Source: an uncultured Poribacteria bacterium
GTDB taxonomy: Bacteria > Poribacteria > WGA-4E > WGA-3G
Direction of reading: 5' to 3'
DNA length: 64,000 nt
Assembly: GCA_951828515.1 (NCBI GenBank)
Contig: OX639992.1
Span: 5,186,217-5,250,216 of the forward strand
Shown: positions 13,831 through 62,900 of the stretch, piece after piece
How positions within the stretch are numbered: position 1 is the stretch's first letter
How the letters are laid out: every line of letters starts with the position of its first letter
Notes under the pieces: model-generated
What the model was told of the DNA's origin: nothing
Seen by the model: only the letters and a program-made list of their open reading frames with translations
Databases searched by the model: none
Position numbers and translations under genes: made by a program

Positions 13831-14268
13831 ATGCCTAAATACGTAGTAGCAACCCCAGATGAAATCCCTCCCGGTGAACGCAAAATCGTCGAGATCGGCG
13901 GACGCTCCATCGGTGTTTTTAATATTGATGGCGAGTACTTCGCTATTCGTAATAGTTGCCCGCACCAAGGCGGCCCCCTGTGCAACGGGCTGGTCACTGG
14001 ATTTTTAGAGGCACCCGTACCCGGCGACTATAACTACACCCGCCAAGGTGAAATTCTCCGATGCCCATGGCACAGTTGGGAATTCGACATCAAAACAGGG
14101 CAATCTTGGTGGAGTCCGGCACAACGACGCGTCAGAAGATACGAGGTCCAAGTCGAGAGCGGTGAGAACATCGCAGCATCGAGTTCTGAACGCGAAAAAG
14201 GTCCTTATGTCGCCGATACCTTTCCAGTCACCGTCGAACAACAGTACGTTGTCATCGAAATAGACTAA
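13831..14268 (+). CDS. Rieske [2Fe-2S] ferredoxin-like protein
   Basis: 145 aa single-domain Rieske protein. The two cluster-binding motifs are intact: 'CPHQGGPLCNG' (C-x-H) near residue 48 and 'CPWHSWEFD' (C-x-x-H) near residue 79. The chain begins 'KYVVATPDEIPPGERKIVEIGGRSIGVF', typical of small Rieske ferredoxins that pass electrons to ring-hydroxylating oxygenases; there is no oxygenase catalytic domain. The gene directly follows repeats and has no obvious ribosome-binding site. Its last four bases overlap the end of the convergent PhyH gene. It may serve as an electron carrier for a nearby oxygenase. Confidence 0.88.
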   Translation: MPKYVVATPDEIPPGERKIVEIGGRSIGVFNIDGEYFAIRNSCPHQGGPLCNGLVTGFLEAPVPGDYNYTRQGEILRCPWHSWEFDIKTGQSWWSPAQRRVRRYEVQVESGENIAASSSEREKGPYVADTFPVTVEQQYVVIEID

Positions 14269-15068
14269 CTCTCCTCTTCTAACCCGTCGATTAATTTTTC
14301 CTGATCGCCTGGCGAATAGAAGTAAGATCCCGGTTTCCAATCCCCGATGTCCCCGATTAACCGACGTTGGCGCGGCGTGCATCGCTCCATAAGTTCAGGT
14401 GTCGCCTTTTCGTAGTCAAACGGGCGGAAACAGTGGTGACTGTAGCAATAAATTAACGTCTTGCGGGCGTGTTCCGAGCGGTTTGCGACAACACCGTGCC
14501 ATAACGCATGCGGAAAAACGGCGGCATCACCTGCTTTTACACACAACTGCACCGCCTTAGGGATATACGGACCATCCTTGACCCCGGTTTCTGGAAACGT
14601 TCGATTATGGCTCCCTGGCACAACAGTAAAGTTTCCACTATCTGGACTCTCAAGATCTGTCAAAAAATAATGGATTTTGACCTGTAGGGGTGAACTCGAT
14701 CTGCTGACCCGAATCGTTCGCATCGCCTGTCCGCCGTCCGTATGCAGATACCCTTGATCTTTCGGGTTCGGTGGACGCACGATGACCTCCGACATACTCA
14801 GCTGGATGTAATCACCTATCAGTTCACGCACAATCGGAAACGTCACCGGGTGATCCATCAGATCCACGAAAATATCGTTATCCTCCATCACATTTCGCTT
14901 GTCGAAAAGAGAATCGGCAGTGACATTTTCGCCTTTCCGAAACGCTGTATCCATTTCATCTACTGTTGCTAACAATGCTTGGACTTCTTCAGGAGAGAGT
15001 GCCTCTTTCAAAACGAGGTACCCCTCTGTCTTCCACTGCTTACGTTGATCTTTCGATAAAATTCCCAT
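14265..15068 (-). CDS. Phytanoyl-CoA dioxygenase (PhyH) family protein
   Basis: 267 aa Fe(II)/2-oxoglutarate-dependent oxygenase fold. Iron ligands are visible as H109-x-D111 in 'GYLHTDGG' and the distal H191 in 'ALWHGVVANRSEHARKT', with an arginine about 11 residues later to hold 2-oxoglutarate. The N-terminus 'FRKGENV'/'WKTEGYLVLKEALSPEEV' is typical of the family. The substrate is unknown; bacterial members hydroxylate diverse small molecules. GAGG stands 10 nt before the ATG. It lies downstream of the Csx3-like gene on the same strand (gap about 110 nt) and overlaps the Rieske gene tail to tail. Confidence 0.88.
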   Translation of the reverse strand: MGILSKDQRKQWKTEGYLVLKEALSPEEVQALLATVDEMDTAFRKGENVTADSLFDKRNVMEDNDIFVDLMDHPVTFPIVRELIGDYIQLSMSEVIVRPPNPKDQGYLHTDGGQAMRTIRVSRSSSPLQVKIHYFLTDLESPDSGNFTVVPGSHNRTFPETGVKDGPYIPKAVQLCVKAGDAAVFPHALWHGVVANRSEHARKTLIYCYSHHCFRPFDYEKATPELMERCTPRQRRLIGDIGDWKPGSYFYSPGDQEKLIDGLEEES

Positions 15069-15178
15069 CTTTGATAACCTCTATAAACCTAAATACCTCG
15101 GCACTTGTGGGAGGGGTTTGCAGACCCTGTTCCTTATCGTCAACATTTCTCACCCGATTGATCGGTGCATATTGCGAG

Positions 15179-16144
15179 TCAGTCGATCAGATTCCCAACC
15201 GCATAGTTGGGATTGGGGCTATGACTGATTGTCACGACGTACGTATTCAACTTCGGGTCAAAGCACGCAATCGCTTCAAATAGGTGAGACAACTTGTGTC
15301 CTAAAACCATGGCGACCGGCAACGAGGCGGGACCATTAACCTTGAGCAAACCACCTCCGCTTAGTTCGCCTATTTTCTGCATAGCATCCAAACGCGCAAC
15401 GGTATCTTTGACGATTTGATCGTTACTACTTGGCTCACCAAACCCAATCCGTAAGACATCACGATCACGGATAATGTTGTAGGTCGGTGATTCTGAGGGA
15501 TTGTCCGTGGCTGGATGCGCTGCGATGGACAGATGCTTCGCTATAGCGAGAATACGGCGAGCCAACGCTTGAACCATCGGGCGCGCTTCAATGCGTTCCC
15601 CTCTTTCAAGATGATGAACACTACCGCGGAGGATGTTGTCCGGAGAATCATCCTTAATGACATCTGATTTGCCATGGTAGTTGGAAAATATCTCTGCTAC
15701 CACAGTTAAATCCAATTCTTTTGCGAATTCTCTCCACGCCTCTGTCCGAGAATTCCACTCTTCGCTGTGCTCTGAATCGCCACCCGCGAGAATGACAATA
15801 TGCGTCGCGGACTTACAAATCTCGCGATTGTAGTCATCAATGAGCCCACCGATATCTATCATCGTTAATGGCTGCTCGCAACTGTCTACATGGTCAGCAA
15901 CGAGTTTAACAAATTCCGGCGTGAATTTGCCTTTATAGGCAACTTTACATGCCTTGGCGATTTCAGGGTACTTTTCCATAGTTTCTTGGAACCATGCCCC
16001 TTCTCCATCAGGACAAGCCGTGATTACATACGGATAGGGTACATCAGAACTTTTCTGCTTGAAGGCGAGAATAGCCTGTTTTAATCCCTCGCGTAAGCAG
16101 CTTTTACCTGATTTAGGTGGACCGGCAAGCACAACTTTTATCAA
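15179..16144 (-). CDS. P-loop NTPase fused to a Csx3-like (CRISPR ring nuclease) domain
   Basis: 321 aa from a TTG start six nt behind AGGAGG; the ATG at 16210 would add 22 residues but has no ribosome-binding site. Residues 1-210 form a P-loop domain with Walker A 'GPPKSGKS' (8-15) and an 'MIDIGGLIDDYN' Walker-B-like strand. The last hundred residues resemble Csx3/Crn3: 'GGGLLKVNGPASLPVAMVLG', 'HKLSHLFEAIACFDPKL', 'YVVTISHSP' and a final 'GNLID'. Csx3 proteins cleave cyclic oligoadenylates made by type III CRISPR systems, and fusions to a P-loop domain are known. No cas gene or CRISPR array occurs in the window, so the role here is open. The family call comes from recalled motifs. Confidence 0.72.
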   Translation of the reverse strand: MIKVVLAGPPKSGKSCLREGLKQAILAFKQKSSDVPYPYVITACPDGEGAWFQETMEKYPEIAKACKVAYKGKFTPEFVKLVADHVDSCEQPLTMIDIGGLIDDYNREICKSATHIVILAGGDSEHSEEWNSRTEAWREFAKELDLTVVAEIFSNYHGKSDVIKDDSPDNILRGSVHHLERGERIEARPMVQALARRILAIAKHLSIAAHPATDNPSESPTYNIIRDRDVLRIGFGEPSSNDQIVKDTVARLDAMQKIGELSGGGLLKVNGPASLPVAMVLGHKLSHLFEAIACFDPKLNTYVVTISHSPNPNYAVGNLID

Positions 16145-16277
16145 TCTTTTCCTCCTTTCCCGATTTGGCAACTTAAAACCTAAGTTACCCCTCAGCAAAA
16201 AACGCGGCATAAATCATCAGAATCATATAAGTCGGTTTTATCGATAATACAGAGCGTGGCACAATTTCTTAGTAATA

Positions 16278-16313
16278 AAATAGACGACGAATGAATTTGT
16301 GTCAAGTAAATAG
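16278..16313 (+). repeat. Direct repeat copy 1 (GACAAATGAATTTGTGTCAA type)
   Basis: An AATGAATTTGTGTCAAG core inside an A-rich context. Two further copies in the same orientation lie at 17147-17181 and 17300-17335, all within the gene-free region before the ATPase/nuclease gene. Confidence 0.55.
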
Positions 16314-16333
16314 CGATGTCATCAGGGTCATTT

Positions 16334-16449
16334 ATGGTAAAACCTACAAATAAATAGACATCTCAGTAGAAGCAAAACCTCCACCACCGCTGGCGAGGTT
16401 TCCTAACCTCGCCTCTTTAGAGTGTCTAATTAATTTTAAGGTTTACCAT
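16334..16449. repeat. MITE-like element with terminal inverted repeats
   Basis: 116 bp bounded by ATGGTAAAACCT and AGGTTTACCAT, with an internal perfect hairpin (GGCGAGGTT/AACCTCGCC at 16392-16413). The element at 27412-27547 has the same plan, with CATAGTAAAACTC and GATTTTACTATG ends. No coding capacity. Confidence 0.6.
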
Positions 16450-16635
16450 AGTTTTACATATTTACTTTATATGCGTGAACGTTTTTTCGCTGTAGAGGCG
16501 ATCTCCAACTCGCGACTCCCTCCACAAATCAAGGAAAATCGCGAAAACTAAATGCCTCTATCTAATGCTTCAGAGGCATTCCCTGAATGTCTCAGAAAAC
16601 TGATAACTGACAACTGATAAAAAATCATAAAAAAA

Positions 16636-16664
16636 TTGACATTTTTTCAGGTTTCGTGTATACT
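16636..16664 (+). promoter_or_regulatory. Strong sigma-70 promoter with no gene behind it
   Basis: TTGACA (16636-16641), 17-bp spacer, TATACT (16659-16664). It points into a stretch with no credible ORF but much RNA secondary structure, so it probably drives the RNA candidate starting near 16671. Confidence 0.75.
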
Positions 16665-16670
16665 TATAAA

Positions 16671-16941
16671 CGTAAACACAAACGCGATTCCCCAATCGGG
16701 GCAGACGCATCATAAATCGTCCAAGAACCCAGGCGGTGACTTGCTTCCAAGCTGGTTTTGTTAAAAAATCGCGTTTGGGTCAATGTTCATAAGGGTTTAT
16801 GGGATTTTTGCTCCGAATTTTTGTAGAAAAAAAGCCCCGCGCAGTTCGCGTTTGGTTTTGGGGTGTACGGAGCCACGGCCCGACTGGGTGCAAAATAGGG
16901 GCTGTTCACACGTGCCTTCCCGTTTGAAGGGAATTGGGGAA
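16671..16941 (+). ncRNA. Unassigned structured RNA candidate
   Basis: About 270 nt behind the promoter at 16636. The 5' domain (about 16680-16776) is closed by AAACGCGATT pairing with AATCGCGTTT. It contains three hairpins: CCCC/GGGG, GACG/CGTC and an AACCCAG/CTGGTT stem with an inner CTTG/CAAG. The 3' domain has CATAA/TTATG, GCTCCG/CGGAGC, AGCCCC/GGGGCT, CGCG/CGCG and TTCCC/GGGAA stems. ATTCCCCAAT (16688) can also pair with ATTGGGGAAT (16932), closing the whole molecule and competing with the 5' stem. The hallmarks of tmRNA, RNase P RNA and SRP RNA were not found. A divergent 6S-like or other regulatory RNA remains possible. Confidence 0.5.
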
Positions 16942-16942
16942 T

Positions 16943-17016
16943 GGCTGTCAGCCGTCAGCGGTCAGCCGTCAGTGAAAGAGTTTCTGGTTGCTGACGGCTA
17001 ATAGCTGATGGCTAAT
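16943..17016. repeat. Heptamer repeats (GTCAGCG/GTCAGCC type) with inverted half
   Basis: GTCAGCCGTCAGCGGTCAGC on the left is opposed by GCTGACGGCTAATAGCTGA on the right, forming a potential hairpin immediately after the RNA candidate. Confidence 0.6.
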
Positions 17017-17146
17017 CCGCCTATGCTTTTCTGTTTGACCGAATCGGATTGATGCACTTCTCAACCTTACTTACGTCTCTTTTCTTCCATTCCCATCCTT
17101 CCAACCTTTCAAAACCACCTAACACATCCAGCAACTTGAATTAAAA

Positions 17147-17335
17147 CAGAGGACAAATGAATTTGGGGCAAGCAAATACAGCATCATTCAGTTATTCTAT
17201 GATGGGAATCTCCAAATCCTAGCATCTGACCGCTGACTGCTGATAGCTGACTGGTATTCTTCTGATAACTGAAGACTGATAACTGATAACTAAAATAAAA
17301 CAGATGACAAATGAATTCGTGTCAAGCAAAATAAC
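17147..17335 (+). repeat. Direct repeat copies 2 and 3 with heptamer repeats between
   Basis: Copy 2 (17147-17181) and copy 3 (17300-17335) share ACAGATGACAAATGAATT-like sequence and a following TCAAGCAAA; copy 1 lies at 16278. Between them are GACCGCTGACTGCTGATAGC and ACTGATAACTGATAACT heptamers. Confidence 0.55.
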
Positions 17336-17451
17336 AAAAAACCAACTTCTCGAAAGTCCCTCTGTTTTTCAAAACACGCGCGGTTCGTAGTAGGGCAATT
17401 CATTGTACATTGCATAAGTCCTATTCATCATAAATAGCCCTGAGAAAAAGA

Positions 17452-17479
17452 TTGACATTTGTGCAAATTTGGGTATACT
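17452..17479 (+). promoter_or_regulatory. Sigma-70 promoter of the ATPase/nuclease gene
   Basis: TTGACA (17452-17457), 16-bp spacer, TATACT (17474-17479), about 54 nt before the start codon. It resembles the promoter at 16636, including the following TA-rich stretch. Confidence 0.7.
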
Positions 17480-17532
17480 TAACAATAATATGAGTCATGA
17501 GTTCAGTGGAAGGATAAGGGATTCCGAAGCAA

Positions 17533-19194
17533 ATGAGAAGATTTGGGACTGAAGGGCGCGTGGAGCCTGCACAACACTATTTTGTGCCCCGCACAAACGA
17601 AATTGCCGACTTTATCAACCGCGTCAGAACTGGCAAATACATTGTCCTTTTCGCACCGCGACAAACGGGCAAAACGACATTCTTCCGGCGCGTCATCGAC
17701 GTACTCAGCGAACGGACAGGAACGGGATCACAAATTGAGGCTGCGTCCCACCAAACCGTCCGACAGAACGTTGCTTCTTCTACATCTGATGCAACCTTTT
17801 TCCCAATTCGCCTTGATTTCCAGGTGTGTCGCAATTTATCAGCCCCTGAGTTTTACACATACCTATCAAAAGGGATCCAGTCCCAAATCGAAAGCGTTTT
17901 CCAGAAACAGGGGAATCTACCTGCTCTGTCTCAATTTTTAGATGCCACGCCACTCACCAACCATATTTCGATGATTGACTTTTTCAGGGAGCTTCAGAGG
18001 CTCCTGCAAAATCGGCGGATTGCCCTGATGATAGACGAGTTTGATGGTATCCCCCAAAGCGTCCTAAGCGATTTTTTGTATGCGCTCCGCCTTATCTATC
18101 TGTCCGATGAACCTCGATGTCCACACAGTGTTGGCATCGTGGGTGTCAAGAGTATCACCCAGCTCGACTATGATCGGTCAGTTTCACCTTTCAATATCCA
18201 AGACGAATTCCGCTTACCCAACTTTACCCTTGAACAGGTGCGTGAACTCCTCGGGCAATACACGGAAGAAGTTGGGCAAGCCTTCATGCCAGAGGTCATA
18301 GAATCCATTTATAAGCAGACTGTGGGGCAACCGGTGCTGGTGAATCGGTTCGCACAGATCCTCACTGAGATGTTGGACATCCCAAAGAACCAACCGATGA
18401 CGATAGCACATTTTACAGAGGCACACACACAGCTCCTACGCGAGCGGAACACGAACATTGATCACCTCACGACTAACATCCGCAGGGATCCCCGTTTTGA
18501 AAGCGTCCTGATGCACATCATGACGCGCGATGAAGGTATAGACTTTAATTTGGACGACGACATCATCAGTAAATTAGCAACTTACGGAGTTATCAAAGAG
18601 GGTGCCGATGGTATGTGTGAAATTCTTAACCCGATTTATCTGTATCGTATCCTACGAACCTTCAAACCGACGGTGAACGGCTTAGAAGATAGATACCTTC
18701 CAGACGACACAGATAACGGCTTTGATGACTACCTCATGTCTACAGGACACATTGATATGGTGTCACTACTGAATAACTTCCGAGACTTCATTGGCCGTGC
18801 GGGTTTCAGGATACTACAAATACCGGAGACACCGCAGGAATCGGTCGGACAGTATCTTTTGATAGCATATCTTGACGCGTTTGTCAGACGGATCGGTGGT
18901 ATGATGCACATTGAAGTTCAAACAGGACGCGGGCGGATGGATCTCATTGTGACGCACAATCGACAAAAATATATCGTTGAGACCAAGATTTGGCGAGGCA
19001 CTCACTACTATGAGTCAGGAAAGCAGCAGCTCGCGAGGTATCTCAGGTTGGAGGGTGTGACCGAGAGGTTCTACGTCGTATTCGACCACAGGCAGGTGCC
19101 GGCACCTCGTGTTGAGACAGTGATCGTTGAGGGGAGGATGCTTCATTGCTATGTTATCGCGGTTGTGCAGGAGGCTCCTTCAAATCAGGTGTAG
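17533..19194 (+). CDS. AAA-type ATPase with C-terminal PD-(D/E)XK nuclease domain
   Basis: 553 aa. The N-terminal ATPase has Walker A 'APRQTGKTT' (about 41-49) and a Walker-B-like 'RRIALMIDEFDG' (about 162-173), followed by a winged-helix-like middle. The C-terminal part has the PD-(D/E)XK layout: 'GRGRMDLIV' supplies the Asp and 'KYIVETKIW' the E-x-K (about 465-487), then 'SGKQQLARYL'. This matches the family in which an AAA-like ATPase joins a restriction-endonuclease fold (PF09820/PF08011 type). Function is not established; such proteins are often linked to mobile DNA or defence. The start is the ATG at 17533 (weak ribosome-binding site). A decayed paralogue lies at 42840-44040. Confidence 0.78.
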   Translation: MRRFGTEGRVEPAQHYFVPRTNEIADFINRVRTGKYIVLFAPRQTGKTTFFRRVIDVLSERTGTGSQIEAASHQTVRQNVASSTSDATFFPIRLDFQVCRNLSAPEFYTYLSKGIQSQIESVFQKQGNLPALSQFLDATPLTNHISMIDFFRELQRLLQNRRIALMIDEFDGIPQSVLSDFLYALRLIYLSDEPRCPHSVGIVGVKSITQLDYDRSVSPFNIQDEFRLPNFTLEQVRELLGQYTEEVGQAFMPEVIESIYKQTVGQPVLVNRFAQILTEMLDIPKNQPMTIAHFTEAHTQLLRERNTNIDHLTTNIRRDPRFESVLMHIMTRDEGIDFNLDDDIISKLATYGVIKEGADGMCEILNPIYLYRILRTFKPTVNGLEDRYLPDDTDNGFDDYLMSTGHIDMVSLLNNFRDFIGRAGFRILQIPETPQESVGQYLLIAYLDAFVRRIGGMMHIEVQTGRGRMDLIVTHNRQKYIVETKIWRGTHYYESGKQQLARYLRLEGVTERFYVVFDHRQVPAPRVETVIVEGRMLHCYVIAVVQEAPSNQV

Positions 19195-42765: not shown

Positions 42766-42839
42766 GCAGATCTGAAGTTGACTTCATTTTCTCCAATAGG
42801 ATACACTTAATTCCATATCACGCCACCGATGAGGAAACA

Positions 42840-44040
42840 ATGAAAACGTTTGGGACCGAAGGCCCCGTATCCCCAGAGAAAAACTACGTTGTTAGCCGGA
42901 CAGATGAACTCACCGACTTTATTGATCGAGTCAAACAGGGAAAATACCTTGTTATTTTCGCACCGCGCCAAACCGGCAAAACCACGTTTTTTCAAGTAGC
43001 CCTAAACACACTCGTAACTGAGGAGCCAATCTATTTCCCTATATCCCTAAATTTCGAGACCTATGAAGATTGTTCCCCTTCCGAATACAGACGAAGTTGG
43101 ACAAGCCTTCACCCCTGAAGTTATCGAAAATCTCCACAGACAGACTGCTGGACAACCCTTTCTCGTCAACCGATGCGCCCAAATTCTCACAACAGAACTG
43201 GATATCCCAAAGACCGAGCCGATCACGATGGGGCACTTCTCAAATGCACACACGCGGCTCCTTCGTGAACAGAATCGCAATATTCAGCACCTGCTGACCA
43301 ATATCCGCAGAGACCCGCGCTTCGAAAGAATCCTGATGCAGATCACCTCCTACGATGAAGGCGTGGCTTTCAACTTGGACACTGAAATTATCAGCGAACT
43401 CGTTACGTATGGCGTGATTGAGGAAGATACTGGGGGTGTGTGTAAGATTGTTAACCCAATCTATCAGTTCCGTATCATGCAGGCATTCAAGCAACCCATT
43501 AACGGCTTAGAGCGGGAATACCTTCCGGAAGATACCCGCGCCGGCTTCCGCGATTACCTTACACCTGATGGACACATCCAGATGCAATCCCTCTTGGACA
43601 ACTTTAAGGATTTTATCGCTCGCGCGGGTTTCAGAATCCTGCAAATCCCAGACACACCCCATGAATATGTTGGACAGTATCTCCTCTTCGCTTATCTCGA
43701 CCAGTTTGTCCGCATCGTTGGCGGTGATATGTATCTTGAAGTCCAAACCGGGCGCGGCAGGATGGACCTGCTCATTCTCCACAACGCCCGCAAGTATGTG
43801 GTTGAAACGAAAATTTGGGAGGGGGATCTGCTCTATGAAGCGGGTAAACAGCAACTCGCGAAGTATCTCAGCATAGAAAATGCGGAAGAAGGCTATTATG
43901 TGGTCTTCGATCATCGCAAAAACCCCGAACCTCGGGTAGAAACGCAAACATTACAGAACTTGACGATTCGGAGTTATGTCATTCTTGTGGTGCAAGAACG
44001 TCCTTCAGCTGCAACACTCCATGGACAGAAAACACCATAA
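42840..44040 (+). pseudogene. ATPase/PD-(D/E)XK nuclease paralogue with internal deletion
   Basis: The start (ATG behind GAGGAAACA) gives 'TFGTEGPVSPEKNYVVSRTD' and Walker A 'APRQTGKTTFF', matching the protein at 17533. After 'FETYEDCSPSEY' (about 43087) the frame breaks; a second frame resumes with 'TDEVGQAFTPEVIE', which aligns about 130 residues further on. The missing part contains the Walker B region. The C-terminal nuclease domain is intact ('GRGRMDLLILHN', 'YVVETKIW'). The join 'GAATACAGACGAAG' is consistent with a deletion between short ACA/TACA repeats. The first frame ends soon after the join, so the ATPase is lost. Confidence 0.8.
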
Positions 44041-44056
44041 AAAAGGAGACAAATTC

Positions 44057-46273
44057 GTGAAAGCATTATTATATACTACCACCACGCTACTTGTTCTCAT
44101 GATGCTCACATTTTTATCTAATAGTTTTGCCGAAAATATAGTGCCTAAGAATGTGGTGCGGCTCATCTATTTTACCCCACGTGACCGTGCGCCGCAGCCA
44201 GATATGAACGCAAAACTGGATATGCTGATGAAAGACATACAGCAATTTTATGACGATGAGATGGAACGTCACGGGTTTGGTAGAAAAACCTTCCACCTCG
44301 AAACCGATGCTAGTGGTAACGCTGTGGTACATCGTGTAAGCGGGCAGTTCGCGGATACGTATTACCATCAGCAAACTTGGAACAAAGTTTGGGAGGAAGT
44401 CGATCACCAATTTGATACATCGCAGCATATCTATTTTACGGTTGTAGATATAAGTAGCGGGCATCTGGGACCGGATGGCACTGGGCACGGAACTGTGTGT
44501 GGACGCGGAGGTGCCTACAGTGAGGGTGGAAGGGTACTGGTTGCTGTTTCCGGGGATTGTTTTGAGGGCGAAAATGGCTTCGCCATCGCTGCTCACGAAC
44601 TCGGACACGCTTTCGGCTTATTCCACGACTTTAGAAGTAGTACGTATCTCATGTCTTACGGGATCAACCGAACGGAATTATCAGAATGTGCTGCTGAATG
44701 GTTAGATGTCCATCACTATTTTAACGCTATCGGCAATAGGGCAAACCAACGAGACGCTTTGATCCAAATACATCACATCAAAGCATCGCCCCCAGATTTC
44801 ATCAGTTTCGACTTTACGGTTACCGATGTTGATGGCATGCATCAAATCCAATTGCATACACCAGCAACCACAGCAGCGACACACGAGGCACCTGGAGAAC
44901 CCCACTTGATTGGTTGCCAACGCTTTGAAGGACAACGCAACCGTGTAAACTTTGAGAGCATCGTTCAGTTAGGAGTCGTTGAAGTGACGGAAAACACAGA
45001 ATTCATACTCCAGGTGATAGATGTGCAAGGTAACTTCAAACGACAAGCGTTTCAGATAGATGTGACGCAGTATCTACCATCGCCTAAAGTTATCTCTATT
45101 CCAGATAAGAATCTCGCCACAGCCGTGCGGCAACATCTCAACATGGCAGCGAATGCCCCAATCACACAACACGATATGCTACGACTCATAGAGTTTCGGG
45201 GCAGCAAAGCACCCCTAAAAGACCTCACCGGACTTGAATATGCGAAGAACCTAAAGCATTTCTCACATTTCTACGGGCAAATTTCTGACTTAACCCCCTT
45301 AGCAGGGTTAACAGAGTTACAGTATTTAGGGCTCGTTGGGTGTCAAATTCGGGACATCACACCCCTGGCAGAACTGACAAATTTGACGTGGTTAGATCTT
45401 TACGAAAATAACATTAGCGATATATCACCGCTCGCAAACTTGACACAGCTCCAAATCTTACAGATGTATCAGAATAACATCAGCGATCTAACGCCACTTA
45501 TAGCATTGACGCAACTCAGAAGTTTAGCCCTTGAGGATAATCTGATTCGCGACATCACACCCCTTGCAGGATTAAAACAACTCAGAACCTTATTGTTCGG
45601 AAATTTCACTCCCTATTTGCCCAACAATAACCAAATTAGTGACATCACACCGCTTGCAGAATTAGTAAATCTTGAATTTTTAAACCTTCGATATAATCGA
45701 ATCAGTAACATCACACCTTTGGCGGGACTGACACAATTAAGGCAGTTATGGCTCGAAGGCAATCAAATTAGCGATGTAGCCCCGCTTGTAGGATTAATAA
45801 ATCTCGAAAAGTTACTGCTCGAAGGAAATCCGATTTGGGATGCCACTGCGCTTCAGCCCCTTATCGAAAAGAAACGAGATTTGGAAATTGATATAGATCC
45901 GACTTATATCCATATTACGGGACCATGGCTCTGGATGATAGCCCCTACATCCCCCGGGCAAGGCGGTGCTGCATCAATAGATGTCGATTCCCTCGCAGCT
46001 GCCAATCAAGGGACTATCACTGAAGCCTATATAGCGAAGAACGGCGCGACCCCTGGCGACCGACTCGGACGTTTGACGTGGGCACCTGCTGAAATTCGCG
46101 ATGTATACTTCGGCTACTGGAGTGATAATGTCACAGATGTCGTCCATCGACTCGGTTGGTCGGACGGGGATGTGAACCATCACTCGTCTTATGCACTCAT
46201 CACTCTTAACTCTGCAACCGCGCGAAAGAATGTTCAGATGCGCGTTGGAAGTGACGATGCCGTCAAACGATGA
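44057..46273 (+). CDS. Secreted zinc metalloprotease with leucine-rich repeats (5' part of a frameshifted gene)
   Basis: 738 aa from GTG eight nt behind AAGGAG; upstream codons in the frame belong to the preceding pseudogene. A signal peptide (ends near NSFAE) is followed by a zincin domain with 'AAHELGHAFGLFHDF' (HExxHxxGxxHD, about residue 180) and a Met-turn 'YLMSYG'. An unassigned middle leads to about nine internalin-type LRRs of 22 residues (about 390-600, 'ISDITPLAELVNLEFLNLRY'). The chain ends abruptly at 'VGSDDAVKR'. The next frame continues as a dockerin-like segment, so the stop is caused by a single extra A at 46265-46267. The ancestral protein is 44057-46778. Confidence 0.82.
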   Translation: MKALLYTTTTLLVLMMLTFLSNSFAENIVPKNVVRLIYFTPRDRAPQPDMNAKLDMLMKDIQQFYDDEMERHGFGRKTFHLETDASGNAVVHRVSGQFADTYYHQQTWNKVWEEVDHQFDTSQHIYFTVVDISSGHLGPDGTGHGTVCGRGGAYSEGGRVLVAVSGDCFEGENGFAIAAHELGHAFGLFHDFRSSTYLMSYGINRTELSECAAEWLDVHHYFNAIGNRANQRDALIQIHHIKASPPDFISFDFTVTDVDGMHQIQLHTPATTAATHEAPGEPHLIGCQRFEGQRNRVNFESIVQLGVVEVTENTEFILQVIDVQGNFKRQAFQIDVTQYLPSPKVISIPDKNLATAVRQHLNMAANAPITQHDMLRLIEFRGSKAPLKDLTGLEYAKNLKHFSHFYGQISDLTPLAGLTELQYLGLVGCQIRDITPLAELTNLTWLDLYENNISDISPLANLTQLQILQMYQNNISDLTPLIALTQLRSLALEDNLIRDITPLAGLKQLRTLLFGNFTPYLPNNNQISDITPLAELVNLEFLNLRYNRISNITPLAGLTQLRQLWLEGNQISDVAPLVGLINLEKLLLEGNPIWDATALQPLIEKKRDLEIDIDPTYIHITGPWLWMIAPTSPGQGGAASIDVDSLAAANQGTITEAYIAKNGATPGDRLGRLTWAPAEIRDVYFGYWSDNVTDVVHRLGWSDGDVNHHSSYALITLNSATARKNVQMRVGSDDAVKR

Positions 46274-59973: not shown

Positions 59974-62900
59974 ATGACTTATCCGCAAGGTAAATTAGAA
60001 AACCAACATCACCCCTCCCTTATCCGAATGTCCAGAATTGAGCGCATAGCACTGGTGCTATTTGTCATTGCTTGTCTCTTTGGTCACCCAGTCCGGTTCG
60101 GTATCGCGCAAGAAGCAGAACCCTCTGACCCACCTGCTGCTGAAGAATCTGCAGATCAGACAGAAGAGCAGGAAGGATCCGGCTCAGAGCGGTTGAACCC
60201 GGAGACAGATGTCCCTGAAGAAGGTATGGTAATCGGCGATGGCGACGATATGACGATGGTTGATAATTTTGTCCAAATTCACGGAAATGCGCTTATCAAA
60301 TTTGAGGATGTCATTCTCCGGGCAGACCATATTTGGGCAGATTTCGACGATAATCTAATGCGGGCAACCGGGAACGTCCATCTGAAAACCGGCGACGAAG
60401 AGACTTACTCCGATGAACTCATCTTCAACCTCGAAAACAAAAAAGGGATTGCCCGGAACGGGTTTACATTCAGCGACCCGTGGTACTTCGGTGGCAGTGA
60501 AATCTTTAAGATACAAGAAGACCGCTCCTATATCCGCGGCGCAACCTTGACGACCTGCTCGCTGAAATATCCTCACTACTACTTCAGTGTTTCGAGAGTC
60601 ATTGTCCGAATGAATCAGGAGATGATCGCCAAAAATATCGTCTTGCGTATTGGTGGGTTTCCACTCTTCTATTTCCCCGTAATGCGTCGAGATTTACGGA
60701 AGGGTAAGATCGCAAAGATAATTGTCAAAATTGGGACGGATAGCTACCAAGGTCCCAACATTAGTATCATCTTACCTGTGGCACGTAAACGCCGTTATGA
60801 TGGAGCACTACTTTACGACAGAAGTTCAAAACGCGGGCAAGGGTTCGGGTTTGAAGGTAAATACCGATTCAATGATACACAGTTCCAAGAAATCTATATC
60901 CCAATTCCACCTGATGCACCACCGGACCAGCGCACGAAACTCAAAGAAAAAGCAGAGGAATTACAAGACCGACTTGACGGCGAATACGATCGCTATTGGC
61001 TGCGGCAAATTTTCATTGAATATAAAATCACAGAGGATGATGTCAATCGTGCAAAAGATAAAGCAGCAGATGTCCTCGAACAGCTCCAAGAAGAGGGCGC
61101 TGACTTTGCACAAATCGCACAGAGCAATTCTGACCACTTTGACACCCGTTACGATGGTGGGGATTTGGGATTCCTCGTCCCCGGTGAAGTTGGCGAGGAC
61201 GGTGAACCCAAACTCGATCCTGCTTTAGAGGAAGCCGCCTTCGCACTACAAGAGGGCGAAATTAGCCCTATCGTCCAAACCGAATCTGCCTTCCACATCC
61301 TTAAAGCCGATCGTGTTGTTGATGTCTATGGCGAACGTGAAATTAAACTCCGTCGCATTGATATTGCTATTAGCGCGAGCGAAGATACTGAATACGTCCT
61401 GCGCGAATTGGCGGATGATATGCTCAAACGCGCCCACGAAGGTGAATCCTTTGAACAACTTATACACGTCCCTGATCAATTTTCAGACATCGCCGAACCG
61501 ACCTTATCCGAACCTAATGAGGGTAACGGATTACTCTTAAATGAGATGGAATCCTCGTGGCGCTCCGCAGTTAGACGATTAGAGAATCCAGGAGATGTTA
61601 TTGAACGCCGACCTATCACTATGCCTGAAGGTCTTTACCTTTTCCAACTGATTGAAAAATCGGAGACGCCGACTTTCGAGGAACTCGCTGAACAGTTTGA
61701 GGCAGAGTGGGATGAATTTTACGAAGGGGTGGTGAATCCTGCACCGGAAGATATTGAGGAAGACGGGGACTCGCAAGATACGACTGAAGCAGCGGTCAGT
61801 GATCAGCAATCAGCGGTCGGCAAAGATTCCGACGACGACGTTTCTTCTCTTACTGAAGGTTTCCAACAACCGATGGTTTCCGATAGCCAGTCTTCTGAAA
61901 GCCGAAGGCTGGAGGCTGAAGACTATACCCCCAATACTGATGAAAATCAGAGCGTAGAGCCGATCGAGGAGGATACCGATGAAAACCAGACCGCAGAGCA
62001 GACTGAGGAGGATACTGGTGAAAATCAGGGCGTAGCGCCGGAAGAGCCAGAGACTGAGACAGAAGACGAAACGGCTTCCGATCAGTCTGATGGCGAAGCC
62101 GTGTCCGAAGATCCCTCTACTGAAGAAGGTGCAGAAGATGAGGACGAATTGAAGATCTACCGGAAACACGGTTTTCGCGGTCGGTGGGAAGATCCGAGTG
62201 CCGTCGCTTCAGATGCACAGAGGTTATACGCCGGTGAATTTAGCAGGCGTCCTATTCAAACCAAAAAGTCGTTTCGACTCATCAAAGTTGATAGAAAGAG
62301 AACCTATCGAGGCGATATTTACTTCTACGGTGCAGACCGGTACTCTTACGAGCGGCAGAACGCTACACGCATCGGTAGGCGGTGGATTATGCGATGGGGG
62401 CATACGCAATCCTTTTATACCCCGTGGGATAACCGTGAAGAAGGTAGACGCCCTATCAATTTTACGGGTAGGACTGAGCTGCAAGCCCGTAGTTTTAAGG
62501 AAGAGCTGAAACTCCCCGGAGAATCCACGCTTAGATCTTTCGGAATACTCACCTACGGATCTGGTTTTTCCACCGTTTCTGATACCGATCGAGATGAGAA
62601 TGATAACCTCACGTTTTCGCGGGAAACCATTGGAGATATTACGGGTAGGATCGAAGTTCGACACGTTCACGATTTCACGGGTGAAGGCACAACCTCACTA
62701 CAGAAACTCCCGCAATTCACTGTGAATTTCTCACGGATGCGTGTGAGTGCCCTACCACTCTTTGGGAGTCTGAACAATCGTATGGAAAGCGTTGCTGAAA
62801 AGTTCAAAACTGAGAAACCTTTTCTCTCATTATTTTCTATTCCAACCCTGGAAAGCACAAGTTTCGACTTGGATGTTGAACTCGGTAACTTCTTTAGAGA

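What the first reader, a model, noticed from the sequence alone, without database searches (positions are those of the whole stretch)
15179..16144. Orphan P-loop NTPase-Csx3 fusion without a CRISPR locus
The C-terminal 100 residues carry the Csx3 pattern (S-L-P-V-A-M-V-L-G-H, D-P-K-L, S-H) and the N-terminal part is a P-loop NTPase. Csx3/Crn3 proteins degrade cyclic oligoadenylate messengers of type III CRISPR systems. No Cas10, Csm/Cmr, Cas6 or repeat array occurs anywhere in these 64 kb; the downstream neighbour is a PhyH enzyme. The protein may control another nucleotide-signalling pathway, or serve a CRISPR locus elsewhere.
Basis: partly seen in the sequence, partly recalled or inferred. 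Interest (0 to 1): 0.72.

Follow-up and report, generated by a model that had tools for sequence, protein, structure and literature searches.

The report
Orphan left by a lost CRISPR
This gene encodes a known kind of CRISPR accessory protein, an NTPase joined to a predicted off-switch enzyme, and it sits beside the leader and one worn repeat of a lost CRISPR array, so it is most likely a leftover rather than part of a new signalling pathway.

Summary
In detail: window 15179-16144(-) encodes a P-loop NTPase fused to a C-terminal Csx3 domain, and the genome (one contig, 95% complete) has no detectable Cas10, RAMP or Cas1. The reading as a possible non-CRISPR signalling protein is not supported here, because the CRISPR locus was there and decayed. 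At 16619-16940(+), 0.4 kb upstream of the gene, lie a 285-nt CRISPR leader and one degenerate repeat. This leader occurs in 37 of 84 Poribacteria; in 17 of 20 places checked it is followed directly by an array, and in a same-genus genome it follows a type III-D cas operon. It is the only copy in this genome. The nearest intact relative of the protein lies inside a type III-D locus next to an array. The protein belongs to the known Csx3-AAA family (PADLOC), though the model puts its NTPase nearest MinD/ParA-type (SIMIBI) folds. The Csx3 domain matches cA4-bound AfCsx3 (Z 10.4) and keeps the catalytic His and Asp residues, with R71 replaced by K. More interesting and left open: about 2% of the Patescibacteria sampled carry the NTPase, usually with a Csx3 gene, in genomes without RAMPs, in three loci beside MoxR-vWA genes.

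The parts
15179..16144 (-). NTPase-Csx3 fusion gene (321 aa from TTG at 16144; 343 aa if read from ATG at 16210)
   Evidence: homologues
15522..16141 (-). N-terminal P-loop NTPase domain, modelled closest to SIMIBI folds (MinD/ParA/BioD)
   Evidence: alignment; model pLDDT 88.8; Z 13.4 to MinD 1g3q, rmsd 3.4, 169 aligned
15182..15508 (-). C-terminal Csx3 domain; H305, H309, D318, K320, H330 (343-aa numbering) match AfCsx3 H57, H60, D69, R71, H80
   Evidence: Z 10.4 to 6yud (Csx3 with cA4), rmsd 2.1, 91 aligned; residues PMC7371418
16619..16903 (+). relic CRISPR leader, with TTGACA-17-TATACT at 16636-16664
   Evidence: 75% identical over about 320 bp to the leader of a type III-D array; family in 37 of 84 Poribacteria; arrays follow in 17 of 20 places; promoter-like site
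16904..16940 (+). single degenerate CRISPR repeat GTTCACACGTGCCTTCCCGTTTGAAGGGAATTGGGGA; array lost
   Evidence: 6 mismatches in 37 to the G079 repeat; first 33 nt differ at one place from the first repeat of G098; only copy in the genome
15077..17422 (.). interval between PhyH and the AAA_35 gene that holds gene, leader and repeat; a syntenic same-genus genome has about 0.4 kb of other sequence here

Best explanation
The gene is the surviving ancillary gene of a type III (probably III-D) CRISPR-Cas locus that has been lost from this genome. The cas genes and all but one repeat are gone; the leader, one damaged repeat and the intact NTPase-Csx3 gene remain within 1.8 kb. In a working locus the Csx3 domain would dimerise, sandwich cyclic tetra-adenylate (cA4) between two dimers and cut it with the conserved His/Asp residues and Mn2+, ending the alarm. 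The NTPase, of SIMIBI type, presumably controls assembly or activity by nucleotide-dependent dimerisation. Shown: sequence family, predicted folds, residue conservation, leader and repeat, absence of other detectable cas genes. Inferred: ring-nuclease activity, role of the NTPase, that leader and gene came from one locus, and that there is no substrate left in this cell.
For: Leader plus repeat 0.4 kb upstream of the gene. The same leader family heads real arrays in 17 of 20 places and in G079 follows Cas10-Csx10-Csm2-Csm3-Csx1-Cas6-Cas1. One repeat copy and one leader in the genome. No Cas10, RAMP, Cas1. Nearest intact homologue L002/G054 (72% identity) lies between a III-D operon and its array; window, L002 and the type III-adjacent Entotheonella copy form a clade (100/99). 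In Poribacteria all six other PF09620-positive genomes have RAMPs, five of them on the same contig within about 9 kb. Full-length fusions in Nostoc and Synechocystis lie in type III loci. RAMPs are patchy in the phylum, 47 of 84, so loss or absence is common.
Against: The gene is intact, with catalytic residues kept; pairwise dN/dS to L002 is 0.17 overall and about the same in both domains, so it is not visibly a pseudogene, though this average includes time spent in CRISPR loci. No cas pseudogene fragment was found in the window or 20 kb on either side. Gene and leader could have arrived separately. In G079, of the same genus, a homologue broken by an IS lies in a different gap nearby and is too diverged at synonymous sites to be a simple orthologue (pS 0.69 against 0.33-0.48 for neighbours), so the history includes horizontal movement.
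Confidence: 0.85

Rival explanations
1. The protein has been kept for a function without CRISPR, cutting or sensing another cyclic oligonucleotide, as may be the case for Patescibacterial NTPase-Csx3 pairs.
For: Intact frame and catalytic residues; dN/dS 0.17; NTPase homologues in Patescibacteria and other small genomes without RAMPs, three loci beside bpMoxR and vWA genes.
Against: Relic leader and repeat beside the gene; its clade is the type III-adjacent one; only 3 of 84 Poribacteria have the NTPase, one of them broken; no SMODS cyclase found; the neighbours identified here are a PhyH enzyme and an AAA_35 ATPase, not a MoxR-vWA pair.
Confidence: 0.1
2. It acts in trans for a type III locus elsewhere in the same cell.
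For: G079 keeps its type III-D locus on a different contig from its broken copy of the gene; the assembly here is 95.1% complete.
Against: No RAMP, Cas10 or Cas1 in the single 5.85 Mb contig and no second leader or repeat of this family.
Confidence: 0.03
3. It is a mobile anti-CRISPR ring nuclease brought in by a phage or plasmid.
For: Patchy distribution and xenologous position; cyanobacterial relatives are on plasmids.
Against: No relative in 50,697 phage records or in viral contigs; the plasmid relatives examined lie inside type III loci.
Confidence: 0.02

Closest known systems
Csx3-AAA / AAA-Csx3 family (PADLOC PDLC01045, C3a67); Synechocystis Slr7080 and Nostoc 'CRISPR-associated protein Csx3'
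   Same: Same two domains in one protein, 36-49% identity, type III neighbourhoods.
   Different: The Nostoc and Synechocystis fusions have Csx3 first and NTPase second; the window has the reverse order. No cas genes remain here.
Crn3/Csx3 ring nuclease (AfCsx3; 3WZG, 6YUD, 6VJG)
   Same: Same predicted fold (Z 10.4), H57, H60, D69 and H80 equivalents present.
   Different: R71 is K, one residue is inserted between the two histidines, the cA4-contact stretch is NGPASLP rather than SGRGPIW, and an NTPase is fused. Below the TIGR02579 cut-off.
Type III-D CRISPR loci of Poribacteria (G079, G054)
   Same: Same leader and repeat family (G079); ancillary NTPase-Csx3 gene beside the array (G054).
   Different: Only leader, one repeat and one ancillary gene survive here.
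MoxR-vWA ternary conflict systems that contain Csx3 (Kaur et al. 2020, PMC7159879)
   Same: Csx3 domain used outside CRISPR.
   Different: Seen next to some Patescibacterial relatives, not seen beside the window gene.

Membership tests
NTPase-Csx3 (Csx3-AAA) fusion family | both domains in one polypeptide, matching the family profile | tested here: met
   PDLC01045 E 3e-82 in two stretches, C3a67 E 3e-27; model shows both domains
NTPase-Csx3 (Csx3-AAA) fusion family | the NTPase is of AAA+ type, as the family name says | tested here: inconclusive
   best structural matches are SIMIBI NTPases, Z 12-13; absence of AAA+ from that list does not exclude it
Crn3/Csx3 ring nuclease | Csx3 fold | tested here: met
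   Z 10.4, rmsd 2.1, 91 residues to 6yud_H; five AfCsx3 entries rank first
Crn3/Csx3 ring nuclease | curated profile cut-offs | tested here: inconclusive
   PF09620 23.2 over 21; TIGR02579 18.6 under 55.4
Crn3/Csx3 ring nuclease | H57, H60, D69, H80 of AfCsx3 | tested here: met
   H305, H309, D318, H330; one-residue insertion between the first two
Crn3/Csx3 ring nuclease | R71, described as absolutely conserved in PMC7371418 | tested here: not met
   K320 here, and K in all 17 rows of A2, type III-adjacent ones included
Crn3/Csx3 ring nuclease | Mn2+-dependent cleavage of cA4 | not testable with these tools
   needs purified protein
Active type III CRISPR-Cas locus | Cas10, RAMPs and array present | tested here: not met
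   only a leader and one repeat

The most novel reading that the evidence does not exclude
NTPase-Csx3 pairs form a CRISPR-independent signalling or conflict module, carried by a few percent of Patescibacteria and in some coupled to MoxR-vWA genes, and the window protein still works in that way after its CRISPR locus was lost.
Probability: 0.08. Interest if true: 0.6.

Novelty: new member of a known kind. Interest (0 to 1): 0.22.

Why it matters
It removes a candidate for a new nucleotide-signalling pathway and shows a clear case of a predicted cA4 off-switch gene outliving its CRISPR system, a warning for anyone who reads an orphan ring nuclease as a sign of non-CRISPR signalling. The side result, NTPase-Csx3 pairs in small Patescibacterial genomes with no RAMPs, is the part worth a specialist's time.

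Tried and rejected
In-trans service to another CRISPR locus: no cas genes detected in the genome. Phage origin: no viral relatives. CBASS partner: no SMODS. Rfam over 14000-18000: nothing. PDB by sequence for the full protein: only chance matches. Cas pseudogenes near the gene: none by tblastn. Direct repeats in the 20 kb on each side of the window: no array. AAA+ label for the NTPase: the best structural matches were SIMIBI NTPases; AAA+ did not appear in the list, which does not exclude it. I then took 20 tiles of 20 kb (L062-L081) and listed the rest, which would have rebuilt most of that file by another route. I stopped, did not analyse those tiles, and answered the array question with the genome search and small targeted stretches. 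Consequence: arrays of an unrelated repeat family elsewhere in the genome were not looked for; the absence of Cas1, Cas10 and RAMPs is the evidence there.

Full report
Observation. The protein matches PF09620 above its cut-off, PADLOC Csx3-AAA at 3e-82, but not the TIGR02579 equivalog cut-off. The window lies in a 5,849,392-base single-contig genome, 95.1% complete, of a Poribacterium-like organism (relatives). RAMPs, the Cas10 palm and Cas1 are not detected in the whole contig.

Anatomy. An AlphaFold2 model built from the window and 27 rows of homologues (pLDDT 88.8) has two domains. The N-terminal one is nearest to SIMIBI NTPases such as MinD, Soj/ParA, dethiobiotin synthetase and GPN GTPases (Z 12-13, rmsd 3-4 over about 170 residues); the name 'AAA' used for this family may therefore be inexact. 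The C-terminal domain alone (pLDDT 93.4) ranks the AfCsx3 structures first, Z 10.4 to the cA4 complex 6yud. Against AfCsx3, whose catalytic residues are given in PMC7371418, it keeps H57, H60, D69 and H80 and has K for R71. The type III-adjacent relatives share that K, so it does not mark the orphan. The type III-adjacent Poribacterial copy L002 has instead lost two of the histidines.

The relic. L002 holds the NTPase-Csx3 gene beside a CRISPR array. Comparing the window with type III contigs of relatives showed that window 16619-16936 aligns, 75% identical, to the leader and first repeat of the array of G079 (E 9e-58). In G079 this leader follows Cas10, Csx10, Csm2, several Csm3, Csx1, Cas6 and Cas1, a III-D arrangement. 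As a control on the word 'leader', the 322-nt stretch was searched in 84 Poribacteria: 37 match. Of 20 matching places fetched, 17 have three or more repeats directly downstream, one of the other three ends 68 bases after the repeat starts, and two look like further relics. In the window a single repeat remains, its last four bases changed, and no other copy of the repeat core or the leader exists in the genome. The gene and the relic lie in a 2.3-kb interval that the syntenic G079 lacks at this site.

History. In Poribacteria the NTPase is in 3 of 84 genomes: this one, one inside a III-D locus, one cut by an insertion sequence. RAMPs are in 47 of 84. All six other genomes with a PF09620 match have RAMPs, five of them on the same contig within about 9 kb. 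The tree joins the window to the type III-adjacent Poribacterial and Entotheonella copies. Synonymous divergence from the G079 fragment exceeds that of the flanking genes (62 codons only), so the gene or its locus probably moved horizontally. dN/dS to L002 is 0.17 in this pairwise comparison, which shows past constraint but cannot say whether the gene is constrained now.

Reading. The simplest account is loss of a type III-D locus that left its ancillary off-switch gene, leader and one repeat. Orphan ring-nuclease-like genes have a precedent of a kind: PMC12409355 reports Csx15 in genomes without type III loci in 25% of cases. [quoted passage not shown]

What stays open. The NTPase is also found in 8 of 379 Patescibacteria sampled. 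None of the six newly found ones that were tested has a RAMP, nor does any of the small genomes first fetched. In most of them a Csx3 gene lies beside it. In three loci (L005, L009, L043) bpMoxR and vWA-like genes follow. Kaur et al. 2020 (PMC7159879) described a Csx3 domain in a cyanobacterial MoxR-vWA system. No paper in the held library mentions both Csx3 and Patescibacteria. These genomes are incomplete, and no test of chance linkage was made.

Process. 

Noticed in passing
L005, L009, L043 (Omnitrophota and small Patescibacteria-like genomes): NTPase and Csx3 genes are followed by bpMoxR and vWA genes, in genomes without detectable RAMPs.
   Followed up: partly
L005:4520-5407, L007:11470-11958, C-terminus of L043:9757-11589: A shared conserved region (FAQR..NR.GL.RFVKNR ... 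FW..HAL) near the Patescibacterial modules; the L007 and L005 copies gave no Pfam match.
   Followed up: partly
L007, L010, L011, L013, L014, L015, L016: A TrmB-like regulator gene family lies near the NTPase-Csx3 genes in seven loci; one member was tested against Pfam.
   Followed up: partly
L013:10146-12020 and L015:9851-11149: The NTPase is fused to C-terminal extensions without a significant Pfam match.
   Followed up: no
L002:314-1267: The type III-adjacent Poribacterial copy has Q and R where the second and third catalytic histidines should be.
   Followed up: no
L019:9995-10873: NTPase gene of a same-genus genome is cut after about 62 codons and runs in frame into a transposase-like sequence.
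   Followed up: partly
L085 and L090 (G099): Two further CRISPR leaders with a single repeat, so leader-plus-one-repeat relics recur in this group.
   Followed up: no
window 17533-19194 and about 42839-44007: Two related AAA_35 ATPase genes; the first ends in a weak PD-(D/E)XK/NERD-like match.
   Followed up: no
window 45324-45853: 66-base periodic direct repeats; the unit looks like leucine-rich-repeat coding.
   Followed up: no
window 61934-62057: Three tandem copies of a 39-base repeat, probably coding.
   Followed up: no
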